Below are positions 2,219 through 33,997 of a stretch of DNA of 34,551 nucleotides, in pieces. Where the stretch lies: contig JAJFGW010000015.1 of NCBI GenBank assembly GCA_021775915.1, forward strand, positions 1-34,551, in the 5' to 3' direction. Positions within the stretch are counted from its first letter, which is position 1, and each line of letters opens with the position of its first letter. The position numbers and the translations under genes were made by a program. This DNA is from Alphaproteobacteria bacterium. GTDB lineage: Bacteria > Pseudomonadota > Alphaproteobacteria > Micavibrionales > Micavibrionaceae. The notes under the pieces are model-generated. The model was not told the DNA's origin. It worked only from the letters and a program-made list of their open reading frames with translations, and did no database searches.

Positions 2219-3073
2219 CTATCCGGCAGCTGACTTTTCCAGAGCTTCCATGTCATAGTTGCCTTCTCGGAGAACGTAGAGGCCGCGGCAATCACTCATA
2301 GGAGTGAAGTCTTCTGAAATACCCAAGACAGTTTCGGCGCCGCCCAAAAACAGGAAACCGTCTGAGGGTATACGCTTTGCCATTTTGATGAGGATCTCTT
2401 TTTTCGTTTCTTCATTAAAATAAATCAGAACATTGCGGCACAGAATAATGTCAAAAAGGCCAAGAGTCGCCATGTCGTTTAACAGATTAAAGTTCTGAAA
2501 CTTAACCATGTTGCGGACCTCTTCTTTTAGTTTCCAGTTTTCATTATTTTGCTCAAAATATTTTGTTAGCAGCTGAATGGGAAGGCCGCGCTGTACCTCG
2601 AACTGTGAATATTCTGCTTTTCTTGCTATTTCTAAAATGTCATCAGAGATGTCGGTCGCAACAATTTCGATCTTCCAGCCAGGAATAAGGTGCTGATTTT
2701 CAAGCGCTGTGATGGCCAGAGAGTAGGGCTCTTGGCCGCTGGAGCTGGCCGCGCACCATATGCGCAAAGAACGCTGAGTAGATCTGCTTTTTGCGATATA
2801 GGGCAAAACAACTTCTTTGAAAAGCTCGAAAGGCTTGCCATCACGGAAAAAGGAAGTCTCATTGGTCGTCATGGCTTCGACTATATCTTTGACAAGAGCC
2901 GGATCTGGCATGCCGCGTAGAGCAACGCTCATGGTATCCAGAGAAGCAAAATCCCATTTTTTAGCAACCGGGGTCAGACGCGAGTCCAAGAGATAACATT
3001 TGTCCGCTGACAATGTAAGGCCGGATTGCTTCATCAGCATGTCTTTATATAGATCGAAGTCAGCTATACGCAT
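2219..3073 (-). CDS. cheR: Chemoreceptor glutamate O-methyltransferase CheR
   Basis: CheR methylates glutamates of chemoreceptors using S-adenosylmethionine and so sets adaptation with CheB. The 284 residues have the standard two-part layout: a helical N-terminal domain (1-80) with the conserved NETSFFR (71-77), and a Rossmann-type SAM domain containing IWCAASSSGQEPYSLA (105-120), the acidic ATDIS strand (139-143) and FDIILCRNVLIYF (207-219). There is no VxR-type C-terminal extension, and no TPR or pentapeptide tether module is visible. It is the last chemotaxis gene of the operon, 35 bases after cheB. No chemoreceptor gene lies in the window. Confidence 0.96.
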   Translation of the reverse strand: MRIADFDLYKDMLMKQSGLTLSADKCYLLDSRLTPVAKKWDFASLDTMSVALRGMPDPALVKDIVEAMTTNETSFFRDGKPFELFKEVVLPYIAKSRSTQRSLRIWCAASSSGQEPYSLAITALENQHLIPGWKIEIVATDISDDILEIARKAEYSQFEVQRGLPIQLLTKYFEQNNENWKLKEEVRNMVKFQNFNLLNDMATLGLFDIILCRNVLIYFNEETKKEILIKMAKRIPSDGFLFLGGAETVLGISEDFTPMSDCRGLYVLREGNYDMEALEKSAAG

Positions 3074-3108: not shown

Positions 3109-4245
3109 CTAGTCTATAACATTTTTTTTCAGCCAGGGCCCTATTTCATGTATAGGTAACACCTCCGTACACAGTCCCTCCAGGGCAACGGCTCCTGGCA
3201 TACCCCATACGACACTGGTTTGTTCATCCTGGGCGATGATATATCCGCCTTTATCTGCAAGAAGCTTAAACCCTTCTATACCATCGCTACCCATACCGGT
3301 TAGCATAATACCGAGCACTTTATTTCCGTATAGGTCAATGACGCTTTTCATCATGGGCTCAACGGAAGGCTTACAATAGTTCACTTGAGGTCCTTCATCC
3401 AGGTTAACTTCAAGCCTTCCATTGTTACGAACAATTTCCATGTGATAGCCGCCCGGGGCGACATAGGCATGCCCTTTTTCGACTGGCATGCCTTGTTCTC
3501 CCTCATGGCAGGGGATTTTACAGTTTTGCTCGATATGTTCAGCCAGAATAGCGGTGAAGGTTTTAGGCATATGCTGGGTAATGACAATGGGCACATCAAT
3601 GCCGGCTACAATTCTCAATGCCTGGAAAAGAGCTTGTGGTCCGCCGGTGGAACTGCCGATAGCGACGAGGTCCGGTTTTCCATTGTAAGCCAGAGTTCTA
3701 TCACGCAAGGGAAATGTTTTTAGTTCAGTCTTTGCGGCAACTGTTGCCGTTGTTGCCGCCGTTGCCGCAGCCTTTGGACCGTTGCGTGACTTTCCCAGTG
3801 TTTTAACAAGGCGCAGAAGTGTGCTTTGAAAATCATCAGATGTACCGATGTCGCTGTTGCTTGTGGGCTTGACCAGACATTCTGTAGCACCAAGGGAAAG
3901 AGCCTTCATTGAAATGGAGGCGCCTTTACGGCTTAATGTTGAGCAAATGAGAATTTTTGTATTTGGTTTCTCTTTCAGGATGAGTGGCAGGGCTGTTATC
4001 CCATCCATTATCGGCATTTCAAGGTCAAGGACGACAACATCGGGACGTGATTTTTTGACACTGTTAACAGCCATCTGACCGTTGTGAACGGAGCTGACAA
4101 CTTTAATTTCTTTATCAGCTTCTAGTGTGCGCGCAATAAGTCCGCGGATAACGGCCGAATCATCAACCAGCATGACTTTGATTTTGCCATCATCACCGTC
4201 ATCGGTTTTTTCTTTTGTTTTAGTTTTTGATGGTAACAGAGTCAT
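3109..4245 (-). CDS. cheB: Chemotaxis response regulator / glutamate methylesterase CheB
   Basis: CheB removes methyl groups from chemoreceptors (and can deamidate glutamines) when its receiver domain is phosphorylated by CheA. The receiver spans about residues 22-140 with acidic pair D28/D29, phosphoacceptor D74 (VVLDLEMP) and K126. An Ala/Thr-rich low-complexity linker (about 159-173) leads to the methylesterase domain. The catalytic triad is readable as S199 (IGSSTGG), H225 (TQHMP) and D321 (GMGSDG). The N-terminus carries a charged extension of about 20 residues before the receiver. The ATG at 4245 has AGGGAG 12 bases upstream, rather far, but no better start exists before the receiver. 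It is the fourth gene of the cheAWYBR order. Confidence 0.96.
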   Translation of the reverse strand: MTLLPSKTKTKEKTDDGDDGKIKVMLVDDSAVIRGLIARTLEADKEIKVVSSVHNGQMAVNSVKKSRPDVVVLDLEMPIMDGITALPLILKEKPNTKILICSTLSRKGASISMKALSLGATECLVKPTSNSDIGTSDDFQSTLLRLVKTLGKSRNGPKAAATAATTATVAAKTELKTFPLRDRTLAYNGKPDLVAIGSSTGGPQALFQALRIVAGIDVPIVITQHMPKTFTAILAEHIEQNCKIPCHEGEQGMPVEKGHAYVAPGGYHMEIVRNNGRLEVNLDEGPQVNYCKPSVEPMMKSVIDLYGNKVLGIMLTGMGSDGIEGFKLLADKGGYIIAQDEQTSVVWGMPGAVALEGLCTEVLPIHEIGPWLKKNVID

Positions 4246-4279: not shown

Positions 4280-4660
4280 TTACTCCGCCGCTTGTTCCAT
4301 TAGTCCAACCTGTACAAATTTTGATTCAATGATCTCACTATCAAAAGGCTTCATAATATATTCATCAGCGCCAGAGTTCATAGCGCGCTGAATATGACCA
4401 AGGTCATTTTCAGTGGTGCAAAATATAACTTTTGGCCCACTACCATTGTCCATTTCTCGTAGTTTTTCAAGGAACTCTATGCCACTCATGACTGGCATGT
4501 TCCAGTCCAGCAAAATCACATCAGGCATGGTACCCTGACAGGCATCATAGGCCTTCTGGCCATCCTCTGCCTCATCACAGGAAAACCCCAATCCTTCAAC
4601 TATGCGGCGCGCAACTTTTCGTACGACACGGCTGTCATCAACAACTAAACAGAATTTCAC
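4280..4660 (-). CDS. cheY: CheY-type single-domain response regulator
   Basis: This is a stand-alone receiver of 126 residues with the full phosphorylation set: D8/D9, phosphoacceptor D52 (LLDWNMP), T82/T83 (CTTEND) and K104 (MKPFD). It has no output domain. Position between cheW and cheB makes it the probable target of CheA, passing the signal to the flagellar switch, although the flagellar genes lie elsewhere. The start is GTG, supported by GGGGG six bases upstream. The short C-terminal tail (LMEQAAE) is unremarkable. Without sequence comparison I cannot exclude that it acts as a phosphate sink instead of the motor-binding CheY. Confidence 0.9.
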   Translation of the reverse strand: MKFCLVVDDSRVVRKVARRIVEGLGFSCDEAEDGQKAYDACQGTMPDVILLDWNMPVMSGIEFLEKLREMDNGSGPKVIFCTTENDLGHIQRAMNSGADEYIMKPFDSEIIESKFVQVGLMEQAAE

Positions 4661-4736: not shown

Positions 4737-5231
4737 TCAGGCATGGACTCCTTTCAGTAATTTAGGCACATCAAGAATAACTAAAAGCTGAGATTCCAGT
4801 CGAAAAATACCCATGGATATCTCACGCCAGACAGAGTCCAGCGTTGCTGGGTTGTTTTCATAGTTTTCGTTTTTCAGGCTTAGGACGTCTCCGACCTTAT
4901 CTATGATCAGGCTGTAAAGCTCGTTTTCATGCTCGACGACAACGCTCATATCTTCCTCATCGTCAAGGCGCGGGTCCAGGCCCAGTCGTTCGCGAACATT
5001 GATCGCCGTGACAATGCGCCCGCGTAAATTCAATGCGCCAGCAACTTCTCGTGGAGCCAGAGGGATTTTTGTCACTTTTTGTGATCCAAGCACGTCCTGT
5101 ACCTGTAGTACGGGGATGCCAAACATTTGATCGGCAATTGTGATGGTCAGAAAATCTTTGGCCGAACCAGAAGCAATCTCTGCTTCTAAGTCTTGAGTTT
5201 CTTGAGTGTTTGCATTTGCTGCTGTTGTCAT
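4737..5231 (-). CDS. cheW: Chemotaxis coupling protein CheW
   Basis: CheW bridges CheA to chemoreceptors in the membrane-proximal array. The 164-residue protein is a single CheW-fold domain with a 25-residue acidic N-terminal tail. Recognisable family stretches are FLTITIADQMFGIPVLQVQD, KIPLAPREVAGALNLRGRI and the C-terminal LVILDVPKLL. Its ATG overlaps the TGA of cheA in an ATGA arrangement, which points to translational coupling and matched amounts of the two partners. A longer out-of-frame reading starting at 5244 is not used. Confidence 0.95.
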   Translation of the reverse strand: MTTAANANTQETQDLEAEIASGSAKDFLTITIADQMFGIPVLQVQDVLGSQKVTKIPLAPREVAGALNLRGRIVTAINVRERLGLDPRLDDEEDMSVVVEHENELYSLIIDKVGDVLSLKNENYENNPATLDSVWREISMGIFRLESQLLVILDVPKLLKGVHA

Positions 5232-7906
5232 GAAGCTTCTCCATAGCTTTCCGATAATGTCTGGGAAAGCGTGTTTAGTAAGGTTTCGCGGTCAAATTTG
5301 GCAATATACTTTGTGAATCCGGCCTGTATGCCGCGATCCATATCTTGCGGTGTTGTATGAGAGGACAGGGCAACAAGTGGTATGTTCTGCCAGTTTTCCT
5401 GTGTTTTAACTTTTTCTGCAAACTCAAAGCCACTCATCTCCGGCATTTCAATGTCGCTGACAATGATATCAAAATCATGCCCCGCGTCGCATAATTTCAG
5501 CGCGTCCATGGCACTTTCTGTCGTTGTGACCTCATAACCTGCAACCCTGAGAAGGGGTGTGAGCATATTGCGGAAGAAGGGGCTGTCTTCGACTAGTAAT
5601 ACCCGCTTTCTCTGTCCGCTACTATCGCTACCGTTAGCCCCATAGGGGTTGTCATCATGATCTTTGAACCAGTCTTTATTGACCGTTTGCAGGAAGTGCT
5701 CAACATTGACGACGTCGGTCGCTTTGTCTTCAATGATAGCGCTGCCGAGAACGCCGTCCTTGGTCCCTGCTATCTGGATGTCGATATGTTGCTCTGTAAT
5801 ATCAATGATTTTATCAACGATCAGTCCCATAGAGCTTCCTTTGTCGGAAAAGACCAGAATAGGCTTGCTCTCGAGTTCCATAACTTCCATGGAAGAGTCA
5901 AAGGGGATGAGAGGCATAAGTTCGCCGCGATATTGGACAACAAACGCGCCGTTAGCTTTTTCGATTTCAGCTGTTTTAACTTCCTCAAGTCGTGAAACAA
6001 GCTCGAGAGGTACGGCTTTGGGGTTTGCGTTGCCGGCGGTAAAAAGCAGCAGGGATGTTTTTGCCATTCCGCTGTCGATTTTAGCTTCTGCGGCGGCCCC
6101 CCCTCCCATTGTTTCAGCGGCCTCAATTTCACCAGAGTTTTTGGCAATACCGGCCGGGTCTAAAATCATAATAACGCTGCCGTCGCCGAGGATGGTATTT
6201 CCTGAGAAAATGTCGAGGTCGCGCAGGATATTCGGTACTGGCTTGATGACAATTTCTTCAGTGTCAAAAACACGATCGACAATAACGCCGAACGTATAAG
6301 AGCCGACCTGAGTGACAACAATATATTTGTTAGCGTAGCGGGCTTCGTCTGCTTCCCGGCTCTCTTTTTCGCTGTCTGTCTCATCCTCATGTGAGGAAGG
6401 TGTGTCCGTATTGATTTTCAATAGTTCCTGTAGCGGCACAAGTGGTAGCAAATGATCACGCAACCGGAAGACCGGTGTTCCTTTTATTGTTTCGATACGG
6501 CTGTCACCGTCTGCTGACGTCATAACCAATTCTTTTACTGCCAGTTGAGGAATAGCAAATTTTTCTTTTCCTGATTCGACAATCAGGGCGGAAACAATGG
6601 CAAGTGTCAGCGGAATTTTTATGATAACAGAAGTGCCTTGACCTTCTACGGATTTCAGTTCAATCGATCCGCCGATTTTCTCAATATTGGTGCGAACCAC
6701 GTCCATACCGACACCACGTCCGGAAACGGAGGTCACTTTTTCAGCCGTGGAAAAGCCCGCTTTGAAAATAAACTGTTGTATTTGCTGAGGTGATAGCTCG
6801 GCAATTTCATCTGCTGTGGCCAGCCCATTTGATAAAATTTTGCTCTTGATCATCTCCAGCGGAAGACCTTTACCATCATCGGCAATTTCAATGATGATAT
6901 GGCCGCCTTCGTGATAGGAATTCAGGCGTATCGTTCCTGTTTCCTGCTTGCCGGCAGCGGCACGTATATCTGGTGTTTCGATTCCATGGTCGGCCGAGTT
7001 GCGGACCATGTGAGTGAGAGGGTCTTTAATGAGCTCCAGCACCTGACGGTCAAGTTCTGTATCTTGCCCCAGCATTTCGAGGTCTATTTTCTTGTTGAGC
7101 TCGATACTAATATCACGAATAATACGCGGTAGCTTTGCCCAGGCATTGCCAATGGGTTGCATACGTGTTTGCATCACACCTTCTTGCAAGTCCGAGACAA
7201 CATGATTCAGACGCTGTAACGGCGCGGTAAATTCACTGTCTACTTGTGAACGAAGAATTTGCAGGAGTTGGTTACGATTTAGCACAAGCTCGCTGACAAG
7301 GGTCATTAAATTTTCCAGCACATCAACATTGACGCGTAATGACTGGTTAGCAACGGAAGATTCCTTGGGGACGGCCTGGTCAGCGTCTTCCGCTGCTGGT
7401 GTTGGCGCGGCGGCTGGTGGTGGCTCAGCTGCCACGGGTTGTTCTTCCGGGGTTTCTTCCTGCGTTTTTGGCTCAATTATTATATCTGCCATGTCCGGCA
7501 TTATAACTTCATCACTAGGCGTCACGCCTGCATTTTTAAGAACATCTGCCAGTTTCTGGATTAATTCTGTATCGTCGCCTTCAGGCTCGGAGCCGGTACT
7601 TTCCAGCCCATCGAGAATAAGTTTAATGCGGTCAAGAGATTCAAAAATCAGCGTTACATATTCAGGCGTAACTTCGAGAGTGCCGTCCCTGAAAAGACCG
7701 AGGACATCCTCCCCTTTGTGGGCGACAGCTTCAAGGCGAGGCAAGCCAAGAAAACCGCAGGTACCCTTAACGGTATGGATGACTCGAAAGATTTGAGACA
7801 GGAGTTCTTTGTCGTTGGGGTTTTGTTCAAGCTTAACAAGACCAACGTCCAGCTCCCCAAGGTTTTCACTTGTTTCTGTTAAAAACTCTGTTATCAGGTC
7901 ATCCAT
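5228..7906 (-). CDS. cheA: Hybrid chemotaxis histidine kinase CheA with extra CheW-like and receiver domains
   Basis: CheA autophosphorylates under chemoreceptor control and passes phosphate to CheY and CheB. Order along 892 residues: Hpt domain (1-105) with phospho-His H44 in FRVIHTVKG; a Glu/Pro/Ala-rich linker (about 145-185) where the P2 CheY-binding domain would normally sit; dimerisation helices (190-260); HATPase with N box HMVRNSADHGIE (299-310), G1 DDGKGLP (343-349) and G2 SGRGVGMD (395-402); a CheW-like domain (about 430-590); a second, weaker CheW-like segment (about 616-745); and a C-terminal receiver (768-890) with E773/D774, phosphoacceptor D818 and K870. The P2 loss and terminal receiver resemble the hybrid CheA type of complex chemosensory systems. 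GGGGA lies about 6 bases before the ATG. First gene of the operon. Confidence 0.96.
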   Translation of the reverse strand: MDDLITEFLTETSENLGELDVGLVKLEQNPNDKELLSQIFRVIHTVKGTCGFLGLPRLEAVAHKGEDVLGLFRDGTLEVTPEYVTLIFESLDRIKLILDGLESTGSEPEGDDTELIQKLADVLKNAGVTPSDEVIMPDMADIIIEPKTQEETPEEQPVAAEPPPAAAPTPAAEDADQAVPKESSVANQSLRVNVDVLENLMTLVSELVLNRNQLLQILRSQVDSEFTAPLQRLNHVVSDLQEGVMQTRMQPIGNAWAKLPRIIRDISIELNKKIDLEMLGQDTELDRQVLELIKDPLTHMVRNSADHGIETPDIRAAAGKQETGTIRLNSYHEGGHIIIEIADDGKGLPLEMIKSKILSNGLATADEIAELSPQQIQQFIFKAGFSTAEKVTSVSGRGVGMDVVRTNIEKIGGSIELKSVEGQGTSVIIKIPLTLAIVSALIVESGKEKFAIPQLAVKELVMTSADGDSRIETIKGTPVFRLRDHLLPLVPLQELLKINTDTPSSHEDETDSEKESREADEARYANKYIVVTQVGSYTFGVIVDRVFDTEEIVIKPVPNILRDLDIFSGNTILGDGSVIMILDPAGIAKNSGEIEAAETMGGGAAAEAKIDSGMAKTSLLLFTAGNANPKAVPLELVSRLEEVKTAEIEKANGAFVVQYRGELMPLIPFDSSMEVMELESKPILVFSDKGSSMGLIVDKIIDITEQHIDIQIAGTKDGVLGSAIIEDKATDVVNVEHFLQTVNKDWFKDHDDNPYGANGSDSSGQRKRVLLVEDSPFFRNMLTPLLRVAGYEVTTTESAMDALKLCDAGHDFDIIVSDIEMPEMSGFEFAEKVKTQENWQNIPLVALSSHTTPQDMDRGIQAGFTKYIAKFDRETLLNTLSQTLSESYGEAS

Positions 7907-8088
7907 TATTTTTCCCCAGGGTGTATTTCAACGTTTCGTTCATCGCGTCTATCTAACTCTATACGAAAACAGTGTTTCTTTGAACGTTTTCAAAGTTTTG
8001 GCATACAGTGATATTACTTCAAAAATACTGAATTTAAGGTTAATAGGCGGGTGATTTGAAAGAGAATTTTGGGAGTGTTATTGAGATG
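7907..8088. promoter_or_regulatory. cheA upstream region with a small inverted repeat
   Basis: This 182-base gap must hold the promoter of the chemotaxis operon. It contains an exact inverted repeat TTTGAA-CGTT-TTCAAA (7979-7994), a possible operator, about 75 bases upstream of the cheA ATG. It also has two close TTAA boxes (8034-8037, 8040-8043; TTAACCTTAA on the minus strand), reminiscent of CtrA half-sites but with the wrong spacing. I see no convincing -35/-10 pair and no sigma-54 or sigma-28 type promoter. The regulatory role is inferred from position. Confidence 0.3.
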
Positions 8089-8763
8089 TTATTGATAAGT
8101 CAGTGTAAAAACGGTGCGCTCACTCTTGTGTTCAGATATATTAATCTCAAATCCATAGTGATGGGCGAGCACTGAAATTGCATACGGATGTACGAGACGC
8201 GGGTCGAGATTCTTCACTGCTATAGTTCTGGAAAGAGCTTCGTCAACCTGTTCGCGCACGAGAGTGTCTTGACCTGTTGCCGTAATGATTGTTTGGCTTT
8301 TTTCTCCGGGGGAAACGCTGATCATGCCGCCTTTAGGCAGGCATTCCTGAGCCAGCATCATAGTGCCCATCAATATTTTGCAGAATCCAAGTGGTATCTC
8401 ATCGTGGCCCATGGGGCCGTGAGGGTCCCAGTCCTGCGTGATTTTGCCGTCTGTACTAATGAGGTCATCAAATATTTTGTGGACGTCTTCGGGTTTGATA
8501 TTCGGGTCGCGTCCTCCGGCACCATAAGCCATGCGGAAAGCCTGAAGACGGGCGGCAGCCATCTGGGCGCTGTGAGCAATGAGGCCAACGGCCTCCTGGC
8601 CTCCTTCTATTCCCATTTCTTCAAGAAATTCAACGCCATTATGGACGGCACCAACAGGACTGATCAAATCGTGACATATACGGGATGCCAGAAGCTCTAG
8701 TATTTCTATATCCAAGGGAGAGCTCTCCATCTTTTCAGTATCATTCCGGGAAGGTAACGACAT
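8089..8763 (-). CDS. chpT: ChpT-type histidine phosphotransferase
   Basis: ChpT is the dimeric phosphotransfer protein that moves phosphate from the hybrid kinase CckA to CtrA and CpdR in alphaproteobacteria. The diagnostic helix SRICHDLISPVGAVHNGVEF places the phospho-His at residue 31, followed by the second bundle helix (LIAHSAQMAAARLQAFRMAYGA) and a degenerate HATPase-like C-terminal domain without N or G boxes. Length is about 224 residues, normal for the family. The start is uncertain: a TTG at 8778 has GGAGG directly abutting it, the ATG at 8763 is preferred, and an ATG at 8730 is possible. The first two overlap the end of the mutase gene. It sits upstream of cheA on the same strand. 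Confidence 0.88.
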   Translation of the reverse strand: MSLPSRNDTEKMESSPLDIEILELLASRICHDLISPVGAVHNGVEFLEEMGIEGGQEAVGLIAHSAQMAAARLQAFRMAYGAGGRDPNIKPEDVHKIFDDLISTDGKITQDWDPHGPMGHDEIPLGFCKILMGTMMLAQECLPKGGMISVSPGEKSQTIITATGQDTLVREQVDEALSRTIAVKNLDPRLVHPYAISVLAHHYGFEINISEHKSERTVFTLTYQ

Positions 8764-10171
8764 AACCAACTTTCTCAACCTCCGTGCAAACCATTTGTTT
8801 CATTTTTTCAAGATTTTCAGGGCTATCCGCTTCTGCTCTGGTCACCAGGGCATTTTGCGTATTAGACGCTCTTAACAGCCACCATCCTTCGGGGGTTGTG
8901 ATGCGAACACCGTCAATATCGTTGACCTGAAACTCTTTACTCTCCAACGCTTTTAGATCATGAACAATTTTTTTAACAAGGTCAAATTTTTTGCTTTCAT
9001 CAACATCAAATCTTATTTCGGGTGTGTTGTATAGTTTCGGTAAATGTGCGGTCAGGGAGGAAAGCGGTCCTTCGGCATCACAGACCTCATTCATCAAGCG
9101 AATAGCGCAATACATACCATCATCAAAGCCATACCATTTGTCGGCGAAGAAAATATGGCCGCTGAGTTCTCCGGCCAGCGGCGCTTTCATTTGCGCCATT
9201 TTGTCTTTGATCAGGGAGTGGCCAGTTTTCCACATCACAGGCTCACCGCCTAAACGCTCAATTTCATCAAATAAAACATGGCTGCATTTGACGTCTGCGA
9301 TAATGGCCGCACCTTTGCGCTCTTCCAGGACTTCACGGGCATAAATCGTCAGCAATATATCACAGCGCAGGATCGTACCGTTTTCGTCAACAACGCCGAT
9401 ACGGTCGCCGTCGCCGTCAAAAGCAACGCCTAGGTCGCAACCGTTATCCAGAACCGTTTTGATAAGGTCCTGCAGGTTTTTGTCAACGGTAGGGTCGGGG
9501 TGATGGTTAGGGAAGTTGCCGTCAATTTCGTCATAGAGCAGGATGTGCTCTCCATCAAGCTTTTCCGTGAGGTGACGAACGACCTCCCCGGTTGAGCCGT
9601 TGCCGCAATCCCATGCGATTTTCATGGGGCGCGAGCCTTTGAAATCGCGTAGCAGGCGTTCAACATAATTATCAATGACATTGGTTTCGCGTAAAGCCCC
9701 TTCATCGTGCTCAAAGTCACCTTTCGCGGCCATTTTCCCTAGCTCCTGAATAATCTCGCCAAAAACAGGAGAGCTTTGCAGGGTCATTTTAAAGCCGTTA
9801 TAATCCGGCGGATTATGCGAGCCTGTGACCATGATGCCGCCATCGGCCATATGATCTTTCACGGCAAAGTAAAGCATAGGGGTGGGGCCAAGCCCTACAT
9901 TTTCAACGGTCACGCCCGTTGTAAGAAGACCGTCAATCAAGGCCCTTGTCAGAGCAGGGGAGCTGTCGCGCCCGTCATAACCAACGCAGACTTGAGAGCC
10001 GCCTTTGCGTTTAATGTAGGTGCCAAAGGTGCAGCCCAGAGCAAAGGCATCTGCTTCAGACAGATTTTTACCTATTTGTCCGCGAATGTCGTATTCCCGC
10101 AAAATTTCAGGATCGAAATTATAGGCTTGCGGGGTAAATTCTGTGTTCTGTTGTTCATCAGGCATTGGCAT
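8741..10171 (-). CDS. Phosphomannomutase / phosphoglucomutase
   Basis: This is an alpha-D-phosphohexomutase of the AlgC/ManB type that interconverts hexose 6- and 1-phosphates for nucleotide-sugar and envelope polysaccharide synthesis. All four signature loops are present: the phosphoserine loop TGSHNP (S118), the Mg loop DGDGDR (252-257), the sugar-specificity loop GELSGH (334-339) and the C-terminal phosphate loop RASNTQNALVTR. The length (476) fits the family. GELSGH suits both mannose and glucose substrates, so the specificity is left open. Its start overlaps the end of galU by 14 bases, which suggests coupled synthesis and supports glucose 1-phosphate as one product, because GalU consumes it. 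Confidence 0.93.
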   Translation of the reverse strand: MPMPDEQQNTEFTPQAYNFDPEILREYDIRGQIGKNLSEADAFALGCTFGTYIKRKGGSQVCVGYDGRDSSPALTRALIDGLLTTGVTVENVGLGPTPMLYFAVKDHMADGGIMVTGSHNPPDYNGFKMTLQSSPVFGEIIQELGKMAAKGDFEHDEGALRETNVIDNYVERLLRDFKGSRPMKIAWDCGNGSTGEVVRHLTEKLDGEHILLYDEIDGNFPNHHPDPTVDKNLQDLIKTVLDNGCDLGVAFDGDGDRIGVVDENGTILRCDILLTIYAREVLEERKGAAIIADVKCSHVLFDEIERLGGEPVMWKTGHSLIKDKMAQMKAPLAGELSGHIFFADKWYGFDDGMYCAIRLMNEVCDAEGPLSSLTAHLPKLYNTPEIRFDVDESKKFDLVKKIVHDLKALESKEFQVNDIDGVRITTPEGWWLLRASNTQNALVTRAEADSPENLEKMKQMVCTEVEKVGYVVTFPE

Positions 10172-11024
10172 TATATTTTTCCAGTATCTTTCTAATGTCT
10201 TTGTTCATGTCCGGGTCTTGCAGGCCAAAGGCAATATTGGCCTCAATATAGCCTAGTCTCGTGCCGCAGTCATAGCGTGTGCCGTCAAAGCGTAGACCGT
10301 GAAAGGGTTGGTTGCCGATTAGTCTGGCCATGGCGTCGGTAAGCTGAATTTCCCCGCCTGCACCTTTATCGAAGGTGGCAAGGTGGTCAAAAACGGTGGG
10401 TTGTAGGATATAGCGCCCTATAATGGCCGTGTTTGATGGTGTTTTTTCCGGGCCGGGTTTTTCAACCATGTTCTTTATTTCAACAATTTTTCCGTTGTCG
10501 GATTTAATGTCGAGAATACCGTATCGCGCCGTGTCTTCTTTTGATACATCCATAGCCGCGACAATATTACCGCCATGCGTCTCATACGCTTCCATCATCT
10601 GTGACAGGCAGTTCTGCTCGGCAATGAAAACATCATCAGGCAGAAGAACCGCAAAAGGCTCGTCGCCCACCAGATCTTTCGCGCACCAGACCGCATGGCC
10701 AAGCCCGAGTGGGTCTTGCTGGTAGGTTTCAAACAGTTTGTCTTTCGGTATTTCGCAGTTCTGAACATCCTCCAGCATTTTTTCGAGATGCGGCTGCGGG
10801 GTAAAATGCTTTGTTAGAAGCTCTTTGCGCGGTGTTGTAACGAAGATGAACTCTTCAATCCCGGCAGCGCGCGCCTCTTCAACAGCATGTTGTATCACTG
10901 GCCTGTCATGCAGCGGTAGCAACTCTTTTGGCATGACTTTGGTTGCAGGCAAAAAGCGAGTGCCCAGCCCTGCAACAGGAAAGACAGCCTTGCGAACGGC
11001 TTTGAAATCGTTAGTTGAACTCAT
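10158..11024 (-). CDS. galU: UTP-glucose-1-phosphate uridylyltransferase
   Basis: GalU makes UDP-glucose from UTP and glucose 1-phosphate in the cytosol. The nucleotide-binding signature AGLGTRFLPATKVMPKELLP spans residues 19-38, followed by QQDPLGLGHAV (102-112), LLPDD (127-131), GEIQLTDAM (224-232) and FDGTRYDCGTRLGY (246-259), all typical of bacterial GalU. Length 288 is normal. No good Shine-Dalgarno is visible before the ATG. It forms a two-gene metabolic unit with the overlapping downstream mutase and may belong to a longer transcript with the upstream J-domain gene, 89 bases away. Confidence 0.96.
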   Translation of the reverse strand: MSSTNDFKAVRKAVFPVAGLGTRFLPATKVMPKELLPLHDRPVIQHAVEEARAAGIEEFIFVTTPRKELLTKHFTPQPHLEKMLEDVQNCEIPKDKLFETYQQDPLGLGHAVWCAKDLVGDEPFAVLLPDDVFIAEQNCLSQMMEAYETHGGNIVAAMDVSKEDTARYGILDIKSDNGKIVEIKNMVEKPGPEKTPSNTAIIGRYILQPTVFDHLATFDKGAGGEIQLTDAMARLIGNQPFHGLRFDGTRYDCGTRLGYIEANIAFGLQDPDMNKDIRKILEKYNANA

Positions 11025-33283: not shown

Positions 33284-33997
33284 CTAAATTGCTGCTGCTG
33301 TAGCTGCTTTTACTTTATCAGCTTCAGGGTCGCGCAGGACATAGCCGCGTCCCCAGACAGTTTCGATATAGTTTGCACCATCTGTAGCGTTTTGAATTTT
33401 CTTGCGCAATTTGCAGATAAACACGTCGATAATTTTGACCTCAGGCTCGTCCATACCGCCGTAAAGATGGTTCAGGAACATTTCCTTGGTCAGTGTTGTG
33501 CCTTTCCGCAGGGAGAGGAGCTCAATTATGCCGTATTCTTTGCCGGTCAAATGCAGAGGCTTGTCGTCAACTTCGACTGTGCGCGTACTAAGGTTAACCC
33601 GCACTCTGCCGGTAATAATCTCGCTCTGCGCATGGCCTTGAGAGCGGCGGACAATGGCCTGAATCCGGGCAATAAGTTCGCGCTTATCAAATGGTTTTGT
33701 AAGATAATCATCAGCGCCAAAGCCAAGACCTTTAATCTTGTTATCAAGCTCGGCCAGACCGGAGAGAATAAGGATCGGCGTTTCGACTTTTGCTGCCCGC
33801 AGGCGCTTAAGCACTTCATAGCCATCCATATCCGGTAGCATGAGGTCGAGAATAATAATGTCGTAATCATAAATCTTGCCGATTTCCAGGCCGTCCTCGC
33901 CTAAATCAGTTGCATCCACGATATAGCCTTCGGATTTGAGCATAAGCTCAATAGATTTAGCCGTAGACGTATCGTCTTCTATCAGTAAAACCCGCAT
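33284..33997 (-). CDS. ctrA: Cell cycle transcriptional regulator CtrA
   Basis: CtrA is the alphaproteobacterial OmpR-family master regulator, phosphorylated through CckA and ChpT, binding TTAA-N7-TTAA sites that control motility and cell cycle genes. The receiver (1-118) has D8/D9, phosphoacceptor D51 ([16 protein letters not shown]), S79 and K101. The winged helix DNA-binding domain (123-223) carries the CtrA-typical [20 protein letters not shown] and [25 protein letters not shown] lies 8 bases before the ATG. The C-terminus is AATAAAI: alanine-rich like the ClpXP-recognised end of Caulobacter CtrA but closing in Ile, not Ala-Ala. TTAA boxes upstream suggest autoregulation, and a terminator follows. 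Confidence 0.97.

What the first reader, a model, noticed from the sequence alone, without database searches (positions are those of the whole stretch)
5228..8763. ChpT phosphotransferase directly upstream of a hybrid CheA operon
The CtrA-pathway phosphotransfer protein ChpT is encoded on the same strand 182 bases before cheA, whose product has its own C-terminal receiver (D818) and lacks a recognisable P2 domain. A receiver on CheA offers a place where ChpT could deliver or withdraw phosphate, linking the cell-cycle relay to chemotaxis. Shared transcription and phosphotransfer are inference; the domain content and order are seen.
Basis: partly seen in the sequence, partly recalled or inferred. 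Interest (0 to 1): 0.6.

Follow-up and report, generated by a model that had tools for sequence, protein, structure and literature searches.

The report
CtrA-relay gene beside chemotaxis operon
A gene of the bacterial cell-cycle relay (chpT) sits next to the chemotaxis operon in this genome and across dozens of related families, most likely because that relay switches chemotaxis genes on, and not because it passes phosphate to the chemotaxis kinase.

Summary
In detail: chpT (8089-8763, minus strand) ends 182 bp before cheA (5228-7906). The adjacency is not local: in a class-wide sample of 289 genomes I found it in at least 81 genomes of 53 families, almost only beside receiver-bearing, F5-type CheA. 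It belongs to a larger conserved locus: in 42 of 76 linked loci ctrA follows the che operon, nearly always convergent, usually with a fliI-like gene on its other side. In four genomes without a detected cheA, chpT and ctrA are convergent neighbours. The window is a rearranged version (ctrA at 33284-33997). ChpT-to-CheA-receiver phosphotransfer is disfavoured: at alpha-1 positions where CtrA contacts ChpT, CckA, CtrA and CpdR carry Asp/Glu (72 of 72) and mostly a small residue; linked CheA receivers carry Ser (74 of 76) and Phe (76 of 76), resembling CheY. Co-transcription is not excluded, but the gap (median 158 bp) is enriched for CtrA-box-like sites. Best reading: ChpT feeds CtrA, CtrA~P activates the che operon, and the CheA receiver serves CheA's own Hpt. 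All inference from sequence; no biochemistry was possible.

The parts
8089..8763 (-). chpT, histidine phosphotransferase of the CckA-ChpT-CtrA relay; H-box His invariant in the 72 linked relatives aligned
   Evidence: PF10090 above cut-off; 4qpj match; alignment A1
7907..8088 (-). 182-bp gap between chpT and cheA; holds a half-site TTAACCTTAA 137 bp before cheA (weak, single)
   Evidence: class-wide enrichment; no consensus promoter or terminator on this strand in the gap
5228..7906 (-). cheA, F5-type: Hpt, dimerisation, HATPase, CheW, CheW, receiver (D818)
4737..5231 (-). cheW (overlaps the cheA stop)
   Evidence: PF01584 3.6e-30
4280..4660 (-). cheY
   Evidence: PF00072 3e-28; role from position in the operon
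3109..4245 (-). cheB
   Evidence: PF01339 9.3e-57; NCBIfam CheB subfamily above cut-off
2219..3073 (-). cheR
   Evidence: PF01739 1.7e-58
33284..33997 (-). ctrA, the relay's DNA-binding response regulator; in 42 of 76 linked loci it lies after the che operon, nearly always convergent; displaced here
   Evidence: NF045991 414.9 bits, cut-off 350; comparative position
8741..10171 (-). phosphomannomutase/phosphoglucomutase-type gene upstream; its end overlaps the chpT start; a homologue was found in only 3 of the fetched cheA loci (window included)

Best explanation
The pair is the remnant, in this genome, of an old alphaproteobacterial motility-control locus ordered chpT > cheA-cheW-cheY-cheB-cheR > < ctrA | fliI >. 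CckA hands phosphate to ChpT, and ChpT hands it to CtrA and CpdR (known pathway; homologues of all four are present here). CtrA~P then activates the che operon from a promoter in the chpT-cheA gap, and flagellar genes such as the divergent fliI-like gene (inferred). CheA's C-terminal receiver does not talk to ChpT; it works inside the chemosensory array on CheA's own Hpt, as a phosphate sink or an aid to Hpt dephosphorylation, as reported for other CheA receivers. So the relay is coupled to chemotaxis by transcription and gene neighbourhood, not by direct phosphate exchange. Shown: gene content, order, conservation, and the mismatch of receiver contact residues. Inferred: promoter activity and all phosphate flow.
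For: Adjacency in 74 of the 98 genomes whose chpT and cheA were both listed, plus 7 more found in fetched loci, in 53 families. Of 83 linked CheA (one, L065, from outside the 289), 76 carry the receiver, 6 are cut by contig ends and 1 (L131) lacks it; among 40 unlinked rows without a receiver none has a chpT found beside it (phmmer with the window ChpT). ctrA is in the fetched stretch of 42 of 76 linked receiver loci, typically about 3 kb after cheA, and a fliI-like gene lies within 1.5 kb of ctrA in 36 of 45 ctrA-bearing loci, divergent in 35. With no cheA match, chpT and ctrA are convergent neighbours (37 to about 620 bp apart) in G003, G027, G052 and G053; in G056, which has a CheA elsewhere, they abut. 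TAA-N7-TTAA in the 200 bp before linked cheA: 18 of 83 against 3.4 expected (maximum 11 in 200 random resamples); before unlinked receiver-less cheA: 1 of 39 against 0.9. Receiver alpha-1 residues resemble CheY, not CckA/CtrA/CpdR. A same-family genome with no cheA match keeps pmm-chpT (G136).
Against: Only a minority of gaps contain a recognisable CtrA box; the window's own gap has a single half-site, no full TTAA-N7-TTAA occurs in the window, and a sigma-70 consensus scan found no minus-strand promoter-like site in the gap. The shorter TTAACC site is also raised before unlinked receiver-less cheA (7 of 39 against 2.7, maximum 8) and not before unlinked receiver-bearing cheA (1 of 25 against 1.9). 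17 of 52 linked loci with enough downstream sequence lack ctrA there, including the window's family. If only CtrA mattered, it is unexplained why chpT, rather than another relay gene, sits by cheA. Linked receivers keep their phospho-site more often (74 of 76) than unlinked ones (21 of 29), which a ChpT-receiver link would also predict.
Confidence: 0.66

Rival explanations
1. ChpT exchanges phosphate with the CheA receiver: either CheA acts as a second hybrid kinase feeding ChpT and CtrA, or ChpT drains or loads the CheA receiver.
For: Receiver-bearing CheA is almost the only CheA found beside chpT (76 of 83 linked, 6 cut by contig ends; none found beside 40 unlinked receiver-less rows). Linked receivers have intact phospho-sites in 74 of 76 against 21 of 29 unlinked (Fisher p 4.5e-4, not corrected for kinship). 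In family f49, where no ChpT was found in 3 genomes, both fetched receivers are degenerate. A paper notes that in Azorhizobium the CheA receiver does not seem to be a sink, so its role is open (PMC10782961 passage).
Against: The alpha-1 contact positions differ from the known ChpT partners. G133 keeps an intact receiver with no ChpT detected at E<=10. chpT persists with no cheA match in G136, G003, G027, G052 and G053. Receiver-bearing CheA occurs in Helicobacter, Campylobacter and Pseudomonas (PMC10782961 passages), outside the class in which ChpT is described (general knowledge; among 14 control genomes PF10090 rang only in Caulobacter).
Confidence: 0.12
2. The adjacency is inherited gene order with no present function: an ancestral cluster that drifts apart slowly.
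For: One orthologous operon seems to be inherited, so genomes are not independent. Some lineages have separated the genes (ctrA moved in the window; 17 of 52 loci without ctrA nearby; chpT about 3-4 kb from cheA in G028 and G257).
Against: The order is kept in 53 families while the upstream flank is not: a pmm homologue is in only 3 of the cheA loci searched. CtrA-box-like sites are enriched before linked cheA.
Confidence: 0.22

Closest known systems
F5-class chemosensory system with hybrid CheA (Rhodospirillum centenum Che1, Azospirillum brasilense, Azorhizobium caulinodans, Caulobacter; PMC10782961 passages, and PMC2890560 passages)
   Same: CheA with two CheW domains; C-terminal receiver; no P2 found here
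   Different: Those passages do not mention chpT beside cheA; I could not inspect the named genomes.
CckA-ChpT-CtrA/CpdR phosphorelay (Caulobacter, Brucella)
   Same: ChpT with the H-box; CckA, CtrA and CpdR homologues in the same genome
   Different: Here, and in 53 families sampled, chpT neighbours a chemotaxis operon. ChpT, CckA and CpdR score below NCBIfam equivalog cut-offs (120 of 240; 722 of 1000; 164 of 180), so they are divergent members.
Rhodospirillum rubrum flagellar gene cluster (PMC12363192 passages)
   Same: Reported to include chemotaxis genes and to have ctrA, cckA and chpT associated with flagellar genes: the nearest published statement of this neighbourhood that I saw
   Different: One genome, given in passing; the class-wide chpT-che-ctrA-fliI order and the receiver association were not in the passages read.

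Membership tests
ChpT histidine phosphotransferase | PF10090 C-terminal domain over the curated cut-off | tested here: met
   76.8 bits against 22.9
ChpT histidine phosphotransferase | Phosphorylatable His in the CHD H-box | tested here: met
   His invariant in the 72 of 83 linked ChpT that were aligned, window included
ChpT histidine phosphotransferase | NCBIfam ChpT equivalog cut-off | tested here: not met
   120.2 bits against 240 and 98.1 against 225: a divergent member. The two models are named for Brucella/rhizobia and Caulobacter, so I treat this as distance, not exclusion.
ChpT histidine phosphotransferase | Relay partners CckA, CtrA, CpdR in the genome | tested here: met
   CtrA over cut-off; CckA and CpdR are best matches but below cut-off
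F5-class CheA | Two CheW domains plus C-terminal receiver, no P2 | tested here: met
   class description from PMC10782961 passages
F5-class CheA | Placement in the F5 clade by phylogeny or class HMM | not tested
   No class models at hand; inferred from architecture
Receiver partner of ChpT (like CckA, CtrA, CpdR receivers) | Asp/Glu at position 9 and a mostly small residue at position 11 of alpha 1 (CtrA numbering; contacts from PMC9981736 passages) | tested here: not met
   Position 9 Asp/Glu in 72 of 72 CckA/CtrA/CpdR, Ser in 74 of 76 linked CheA receivers; position 11 Phe in 76 of 76
Receiver partner of ChpT (like CckA, CtrA, CpdR receivers) | Phosphotransfer with ChpT in vitro | not testable with these tools
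   needs purified proteins

The most novel reading that the evidence does not exclude
ChpT and the CheA receiver exchange phosphate through a docking surface of its own kind: the strictly conserved Phe-Phe at alpha-1 positions 11-12 and Pro at position 18 (76 of 76 linked receivers) form a ChpT-facing patch, so that the chemotaxis array reports to, or drains, the CtrA relay. That would explain why chpT tracks receiver-bearing CheA so closely.
Probability: 0.1. Interest if true: 0.85.

Novelty: new member of a known kind. Interest (0 to 1): 0.45.

Why it matters
CtrA is best known as a cell-cycle regulator, but its primordial role has been proposed to be motility (stated in PMC8116508, passage). 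A class-wide chpT-che-ctrA-fliI neighbourhood, with chpT beside ctrA in some lineages without chemotaxis, is an independent genomic argument for that view. It also gives a practical way to find chpT, which earlier surveys reported as missing or hard to identify in Rhodospirillales (PMC8116508 and PMC2877005 passages). Disfavouring direct phosphotransfer changes what a ChpT-CheA experiment should expect.

Tried and rejected
Direct ChpT to CheA-receiver transfer: rejected as the leading reading on contact residues. It is not excluded.

Mirror-tree coevolution (43 non-redundant loci): partial correlation ChpT-receiver -0.02, but the known pair Hpt-CheY gave -0.04, so the test had no power; I give it no weight.

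Strict dependence of an intact receiver on ChpT: suggested by f49 (receiver degenerate, no ChpT found) but broken by G133 (intact receiver, no ChpT found) and by f112 (ChpT present, receivers degenerate). The f49 genomes are 81-86% complete, so the absence of ChpT there is uncertain.

Exact CtrA box in the window: none. TTAACCAT sites in gaps: none in 79, no enrichment. The extended motif tested was shaped on the same loci and is not independent; I rest on TAA-N7-TTAA, which comes from the literature (PMC9430884 passage).

A genome-contig scan with the window ChpT returned only one named locus (L065, 73% identity), so species names could not be attached to the survey.

Mended on re-reading: my notebook says ctrA was in 6 of the 24 shorter loci; the output shows 7. 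The notebook's tentative residue numbers are replaced by those derived.
Full report
What was checked. chpT is 8089-8763 on the minus strand, cheA 5228-7906 on the same strand, with a 182-bp gap. ChpT passes the Pfam PF10090 cut-off, matches solved ChpT entries by sequence, best the Brucella ChpT 4qpj (the organism of 4qpj from PMC9981736), and is the only such gene in the 2.45-Mb genome. CheA has Hpt, dimerisation, HATPase, two CheW stretches and a receiver with D818 and an acidic pocket in place. No P2 domain was found at E<=0.01; a proline/alanine-rich linker lies there in the sequence. Downstream are cheW, cheY, cheB and cheR. It is the only cheA found in the genome. The second CheW domain, the overlap of chpT with the upstream phosphomannomutase-type gene, and ctrA at 33284-33997 were not in the finding.

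Is it local? No. I searched 289 genomes drawn evenly from the class for ChpT (PF10090: 183 of 289) and CheA (PF02895: 127 of 289). Each table lists only its best 150 rows. Among the 98 genomes that had both genes in the listed rows, 74 have chpT just upstream of cheA on the same strand. Fetching 149 stretches and searching them added 7 genomes whose chpT had not been listed, giving 81 genomes in 53 of the tool's families (family labels copied from the tables). This is a lower bound for the 127 genomes with a CheA match.

Which CheA? With the named locus L065, which is outside the sample, there are 83 linked CheA. Of these 76 carry the second CheW and the receiver; 6 are cut off by contig ends (L066, L075, L096, L130, L163, L164, judged from coordinates) and one, L131 (741 aa), lacks them. 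Of 69 unlinked rows, 29 have a receiver and 40 do not (some are fragments; L179 is one gene split over two rows, one in each group). No chpT was found beside any of the 40, by phmmer with the window ChpT alone, so a very divergent one could be missed. The likely reason is orthology: the linked CheA is the F5-type; CheA with two CheW domains is described for Azospirillum, Rhodospirillum centenum, Caulobacter and Azorhizobium (PMC10782961, passages), while the receiver-less CheA are presumably other systems. The association is therefore likely one inherited arrangement, not dozens of independent events.

The larger locus. A search for CtrA in 58 of these genomes put ctrA close to chpT repeatedly. 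In the fetched loci, ctrA (at least 200 bits to the window's CtrA) lies downstream of cheA in 35 of the 52 linked receiver loci that have at least 6.5 kb of downstream sequence (34 convergent, 1 same strand; mostly near 3 kb, where cheR ends) and in 7 of the 24 shorter ones: 42 of 76 in all. The 40 of these among L066-L139 fall in 27 families. A fliI-like gene lies within 1.5 kb of ctrA in 36 of 45 ctrA-bearing loci, divergent in 35 (some of the other 9 loci may end too early to show it). In L116 and L127 Pfam calls it an ATPase of the flagellar/type III export kind, with a FliJ gene next to it in L116. In G028 and G257 the same order holds with chpT about 3-4 kb from cheA. In genomes with no cheA match, chpT and ctrA are convergent neighbours, 37 to about 620 bp apart, in G003, G027, G052 and G053; I did not test the two larger gaps for small genes. 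Read by eye such genomes among the 58 have both genes: 4 show this, 1 (G025) has them 7.6 kb apart, and in the other 9 they were on different contigs or chpT was not placed. G056 has the two genes abutting although a CheA exists elsewhere in that genome. The window and its relatives are a rearranged form: ctrA is 25 kb away on the other side, and a pmm homologue occurs only in the window, L065 and L129 among the cheA loci searched. A same-family genome with no cheA match (G136) keeps pmm-chpT, so ChpT can be retained without CheA.

Transcription. Over 83 pairs the gap has a median of 158 bp; 5 are 60 bp or less, 52 are 61-200 and 26 are longer. In the 200 bp before linked cheA (which reaches into chpT where the gap is shorter), the published CtrA box form TAA-N7-TTAA (PMC9430884 passage) occurs in 18 of 83 against 3.4 expected and at most 11 in 200 first-order random resamples; TTAACC in 24 against 7.5 (maximum 15). 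Other sets for the box: inside cheA 0 of 83 against 0.4; before unlinked receiver-less cheA 1 of 39 against 0.9; before unlinked receiver-bearing cheA 6 of 25 against 1.2; before chpT (start approximate) 10 of 83 against 2.2. For TTAACC the picture is less clean: receiver-less 7 of 39 against 2.7 (maximum 8), unlinked receiver-bearing 1 of 25 against 1.9, before chpT 12 of 83 against 5.4 (maximum 13) (all). So box-like sites mark promoters of receiver-bearing cheA, and to a lesser degree of chpT. The window gap itself holds only a half-site; a sigma-70 consensus scan found no minus-strand promoter-like site in it, and no terminator after chpT. Co-transcription of chpT and cheA is therefore neither shown nor excluded.

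Phosphotransfer. PMC9981736 (passages) lists contacts in the Brucella ChpT-CtrA complex (ChpT S26, A30, N33, L37 with CtrA D9, A11, S15, L18, M19) and the matching CckA receiver residues (E579, A581, V585, R588, L589). I aligned 30 CckA, 30 CtrA and 12 CpdR receivers from the class with 76 linked CheA receivers, 70 CheY and 68 CheB receivers. Of the 30 loci fetched by the CpdR search I used the 12 best-scoring, because many weaker rows lie in long frames that look like hybrid kinases; the CheB rows have many gaps. Position 9: Glu/Asp in 72 of 72 ChpT partners, Ser in 74 of 76 CheA receivers and 70 of 70 CheY. Position 11: CckA A21/P8/S1, CtrA A15/S8/T3 and 4 others, CpdR S7/A3 and 2 others; CheA receivers Phe 76 of 76; CheY Val 69 of 70. 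Position 18: Pro in 76 of 76 CheA receivers, Arg in 30 of 30 CckA, Leu/Met in 28 of 30 CtrA. The CheA receiver therefore lacks the ChpT-partner signature and is nearer to CheY, which takes phosphate from the CheA Hpt.

ChpT itself. I aligned 72 of the 83 linked ChpT (7 left out as near relatives of others, 4 because my motif missed their H-box, which does hold the CHD His by eye); the phosphorylatable His is invariant in the 72.

Evidence the other way, told in full. Linked receivers are intact in 74 of 76 and unlinked ones in 21 of 29 (Fisher p = 4.5e-4, kinship not corrected). Two fetched receivers of family f49, in which no ChpT was found in 3 genomes by profile A1 at E<=10, are degenerate. 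Against that, G133 (99% complete) has an intact receiver and no ChpT found; and f112 genomes have a ChpT yet degenerate receivers. The mirror-tree test was uninformative.

Role of the receiver. Published work seen as passages gives phosphate sinks in Helicobacter and for R. centenum CheA3 (PMC10782961; PMC3868531), and for Azorhizobium CheA a receiver that does not seem to be a sink but is needed for Hpt dephosphorylation (PMC10782961). I take the intramolecular role as most likely here.

Literature. Thirteen papers in the library hold ChpT, CheA, chemotaxis and CtrA together; I opened 4 of them, as passages. A search for chpT and cheA with 'upstream of cheA' found none; related searches are. 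In all I opened 15 papers, each by term search and passages only, none in full. Of these only PMC12363192 comes near: it says the three relay genes are associated with flagellar genes, and chemotaxis genes are part of the flagellar cluster, in Rhodospirillum rubrum. I did not see the class-wide order stated, but subscription papers (for example on Magnetospirillum and Sphingomonas CtrA) were not available, so I do not claim it is unpublished.

Verdict. A real, class-wide conserved neighbourhood of known parts. The link between relay and chemotaxis is most likely transcriptional through CtrA; direct ChpT-CheA phosphate exchange is disfavoured but not excluded.

Noticed in passing
window 33284-33997 (-): ctrA lies in the same window as chpT and the che operon, 25 kb away, on the same strand; the contig ends at 34551, so a fliI neighbour could not be checked.
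   Followed up: yes
window 8741-8763: The chpT ATG at 8763 lies inside the end of the phosphomannomutase-type gene (23-bp overlap), hinting at translational coupling to it; that gene itself overlaps the ORF upstream (10158-11024), which looks like a UDP-glucose pyrophosphorylase (name recalled, not searched).
   Followed up: partly
L166, L171, L179, L183, L185, L186, L208, L213 (CheA C-termini): CheA receivers with altered acidic pockets (GD, AE or EK in place of the acidic pair): several unlinked CheA carry likely pseudo-receivers; two linked ones (L071, L074) also fail the check.
   Followed up: partly
CheA residues F777, F778 and P784 of the window (alpha 1 of the receiver): Two Phe and a Pro on alpha 1 are invariant in 76 of 76 linked CheA receivers, an unusually fixed surface whose partner (Hpt, second CheW or other) is unknown.
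   Followed up: no
L192 (G133): Intact receiver on a two-CheW CheA in a 99% complete genome with no ChpT detected at E<=10.
   Followed up: partly
G007 C372, C702, C40: One genome with 7% contamination carries three chpT copies, two beside cheA and one beside ctrA; possibly mixed sequences.
   Followed up: no
second CheW-like domain of CheA, window 5687-6052 (-): This CheA carries a second, weaker CheW domain before the receiver; earlier studies are said not to have explored its function specifically, apart from one deletion in Azorhizobium (PMC10782961 passage).
   Followed up: no
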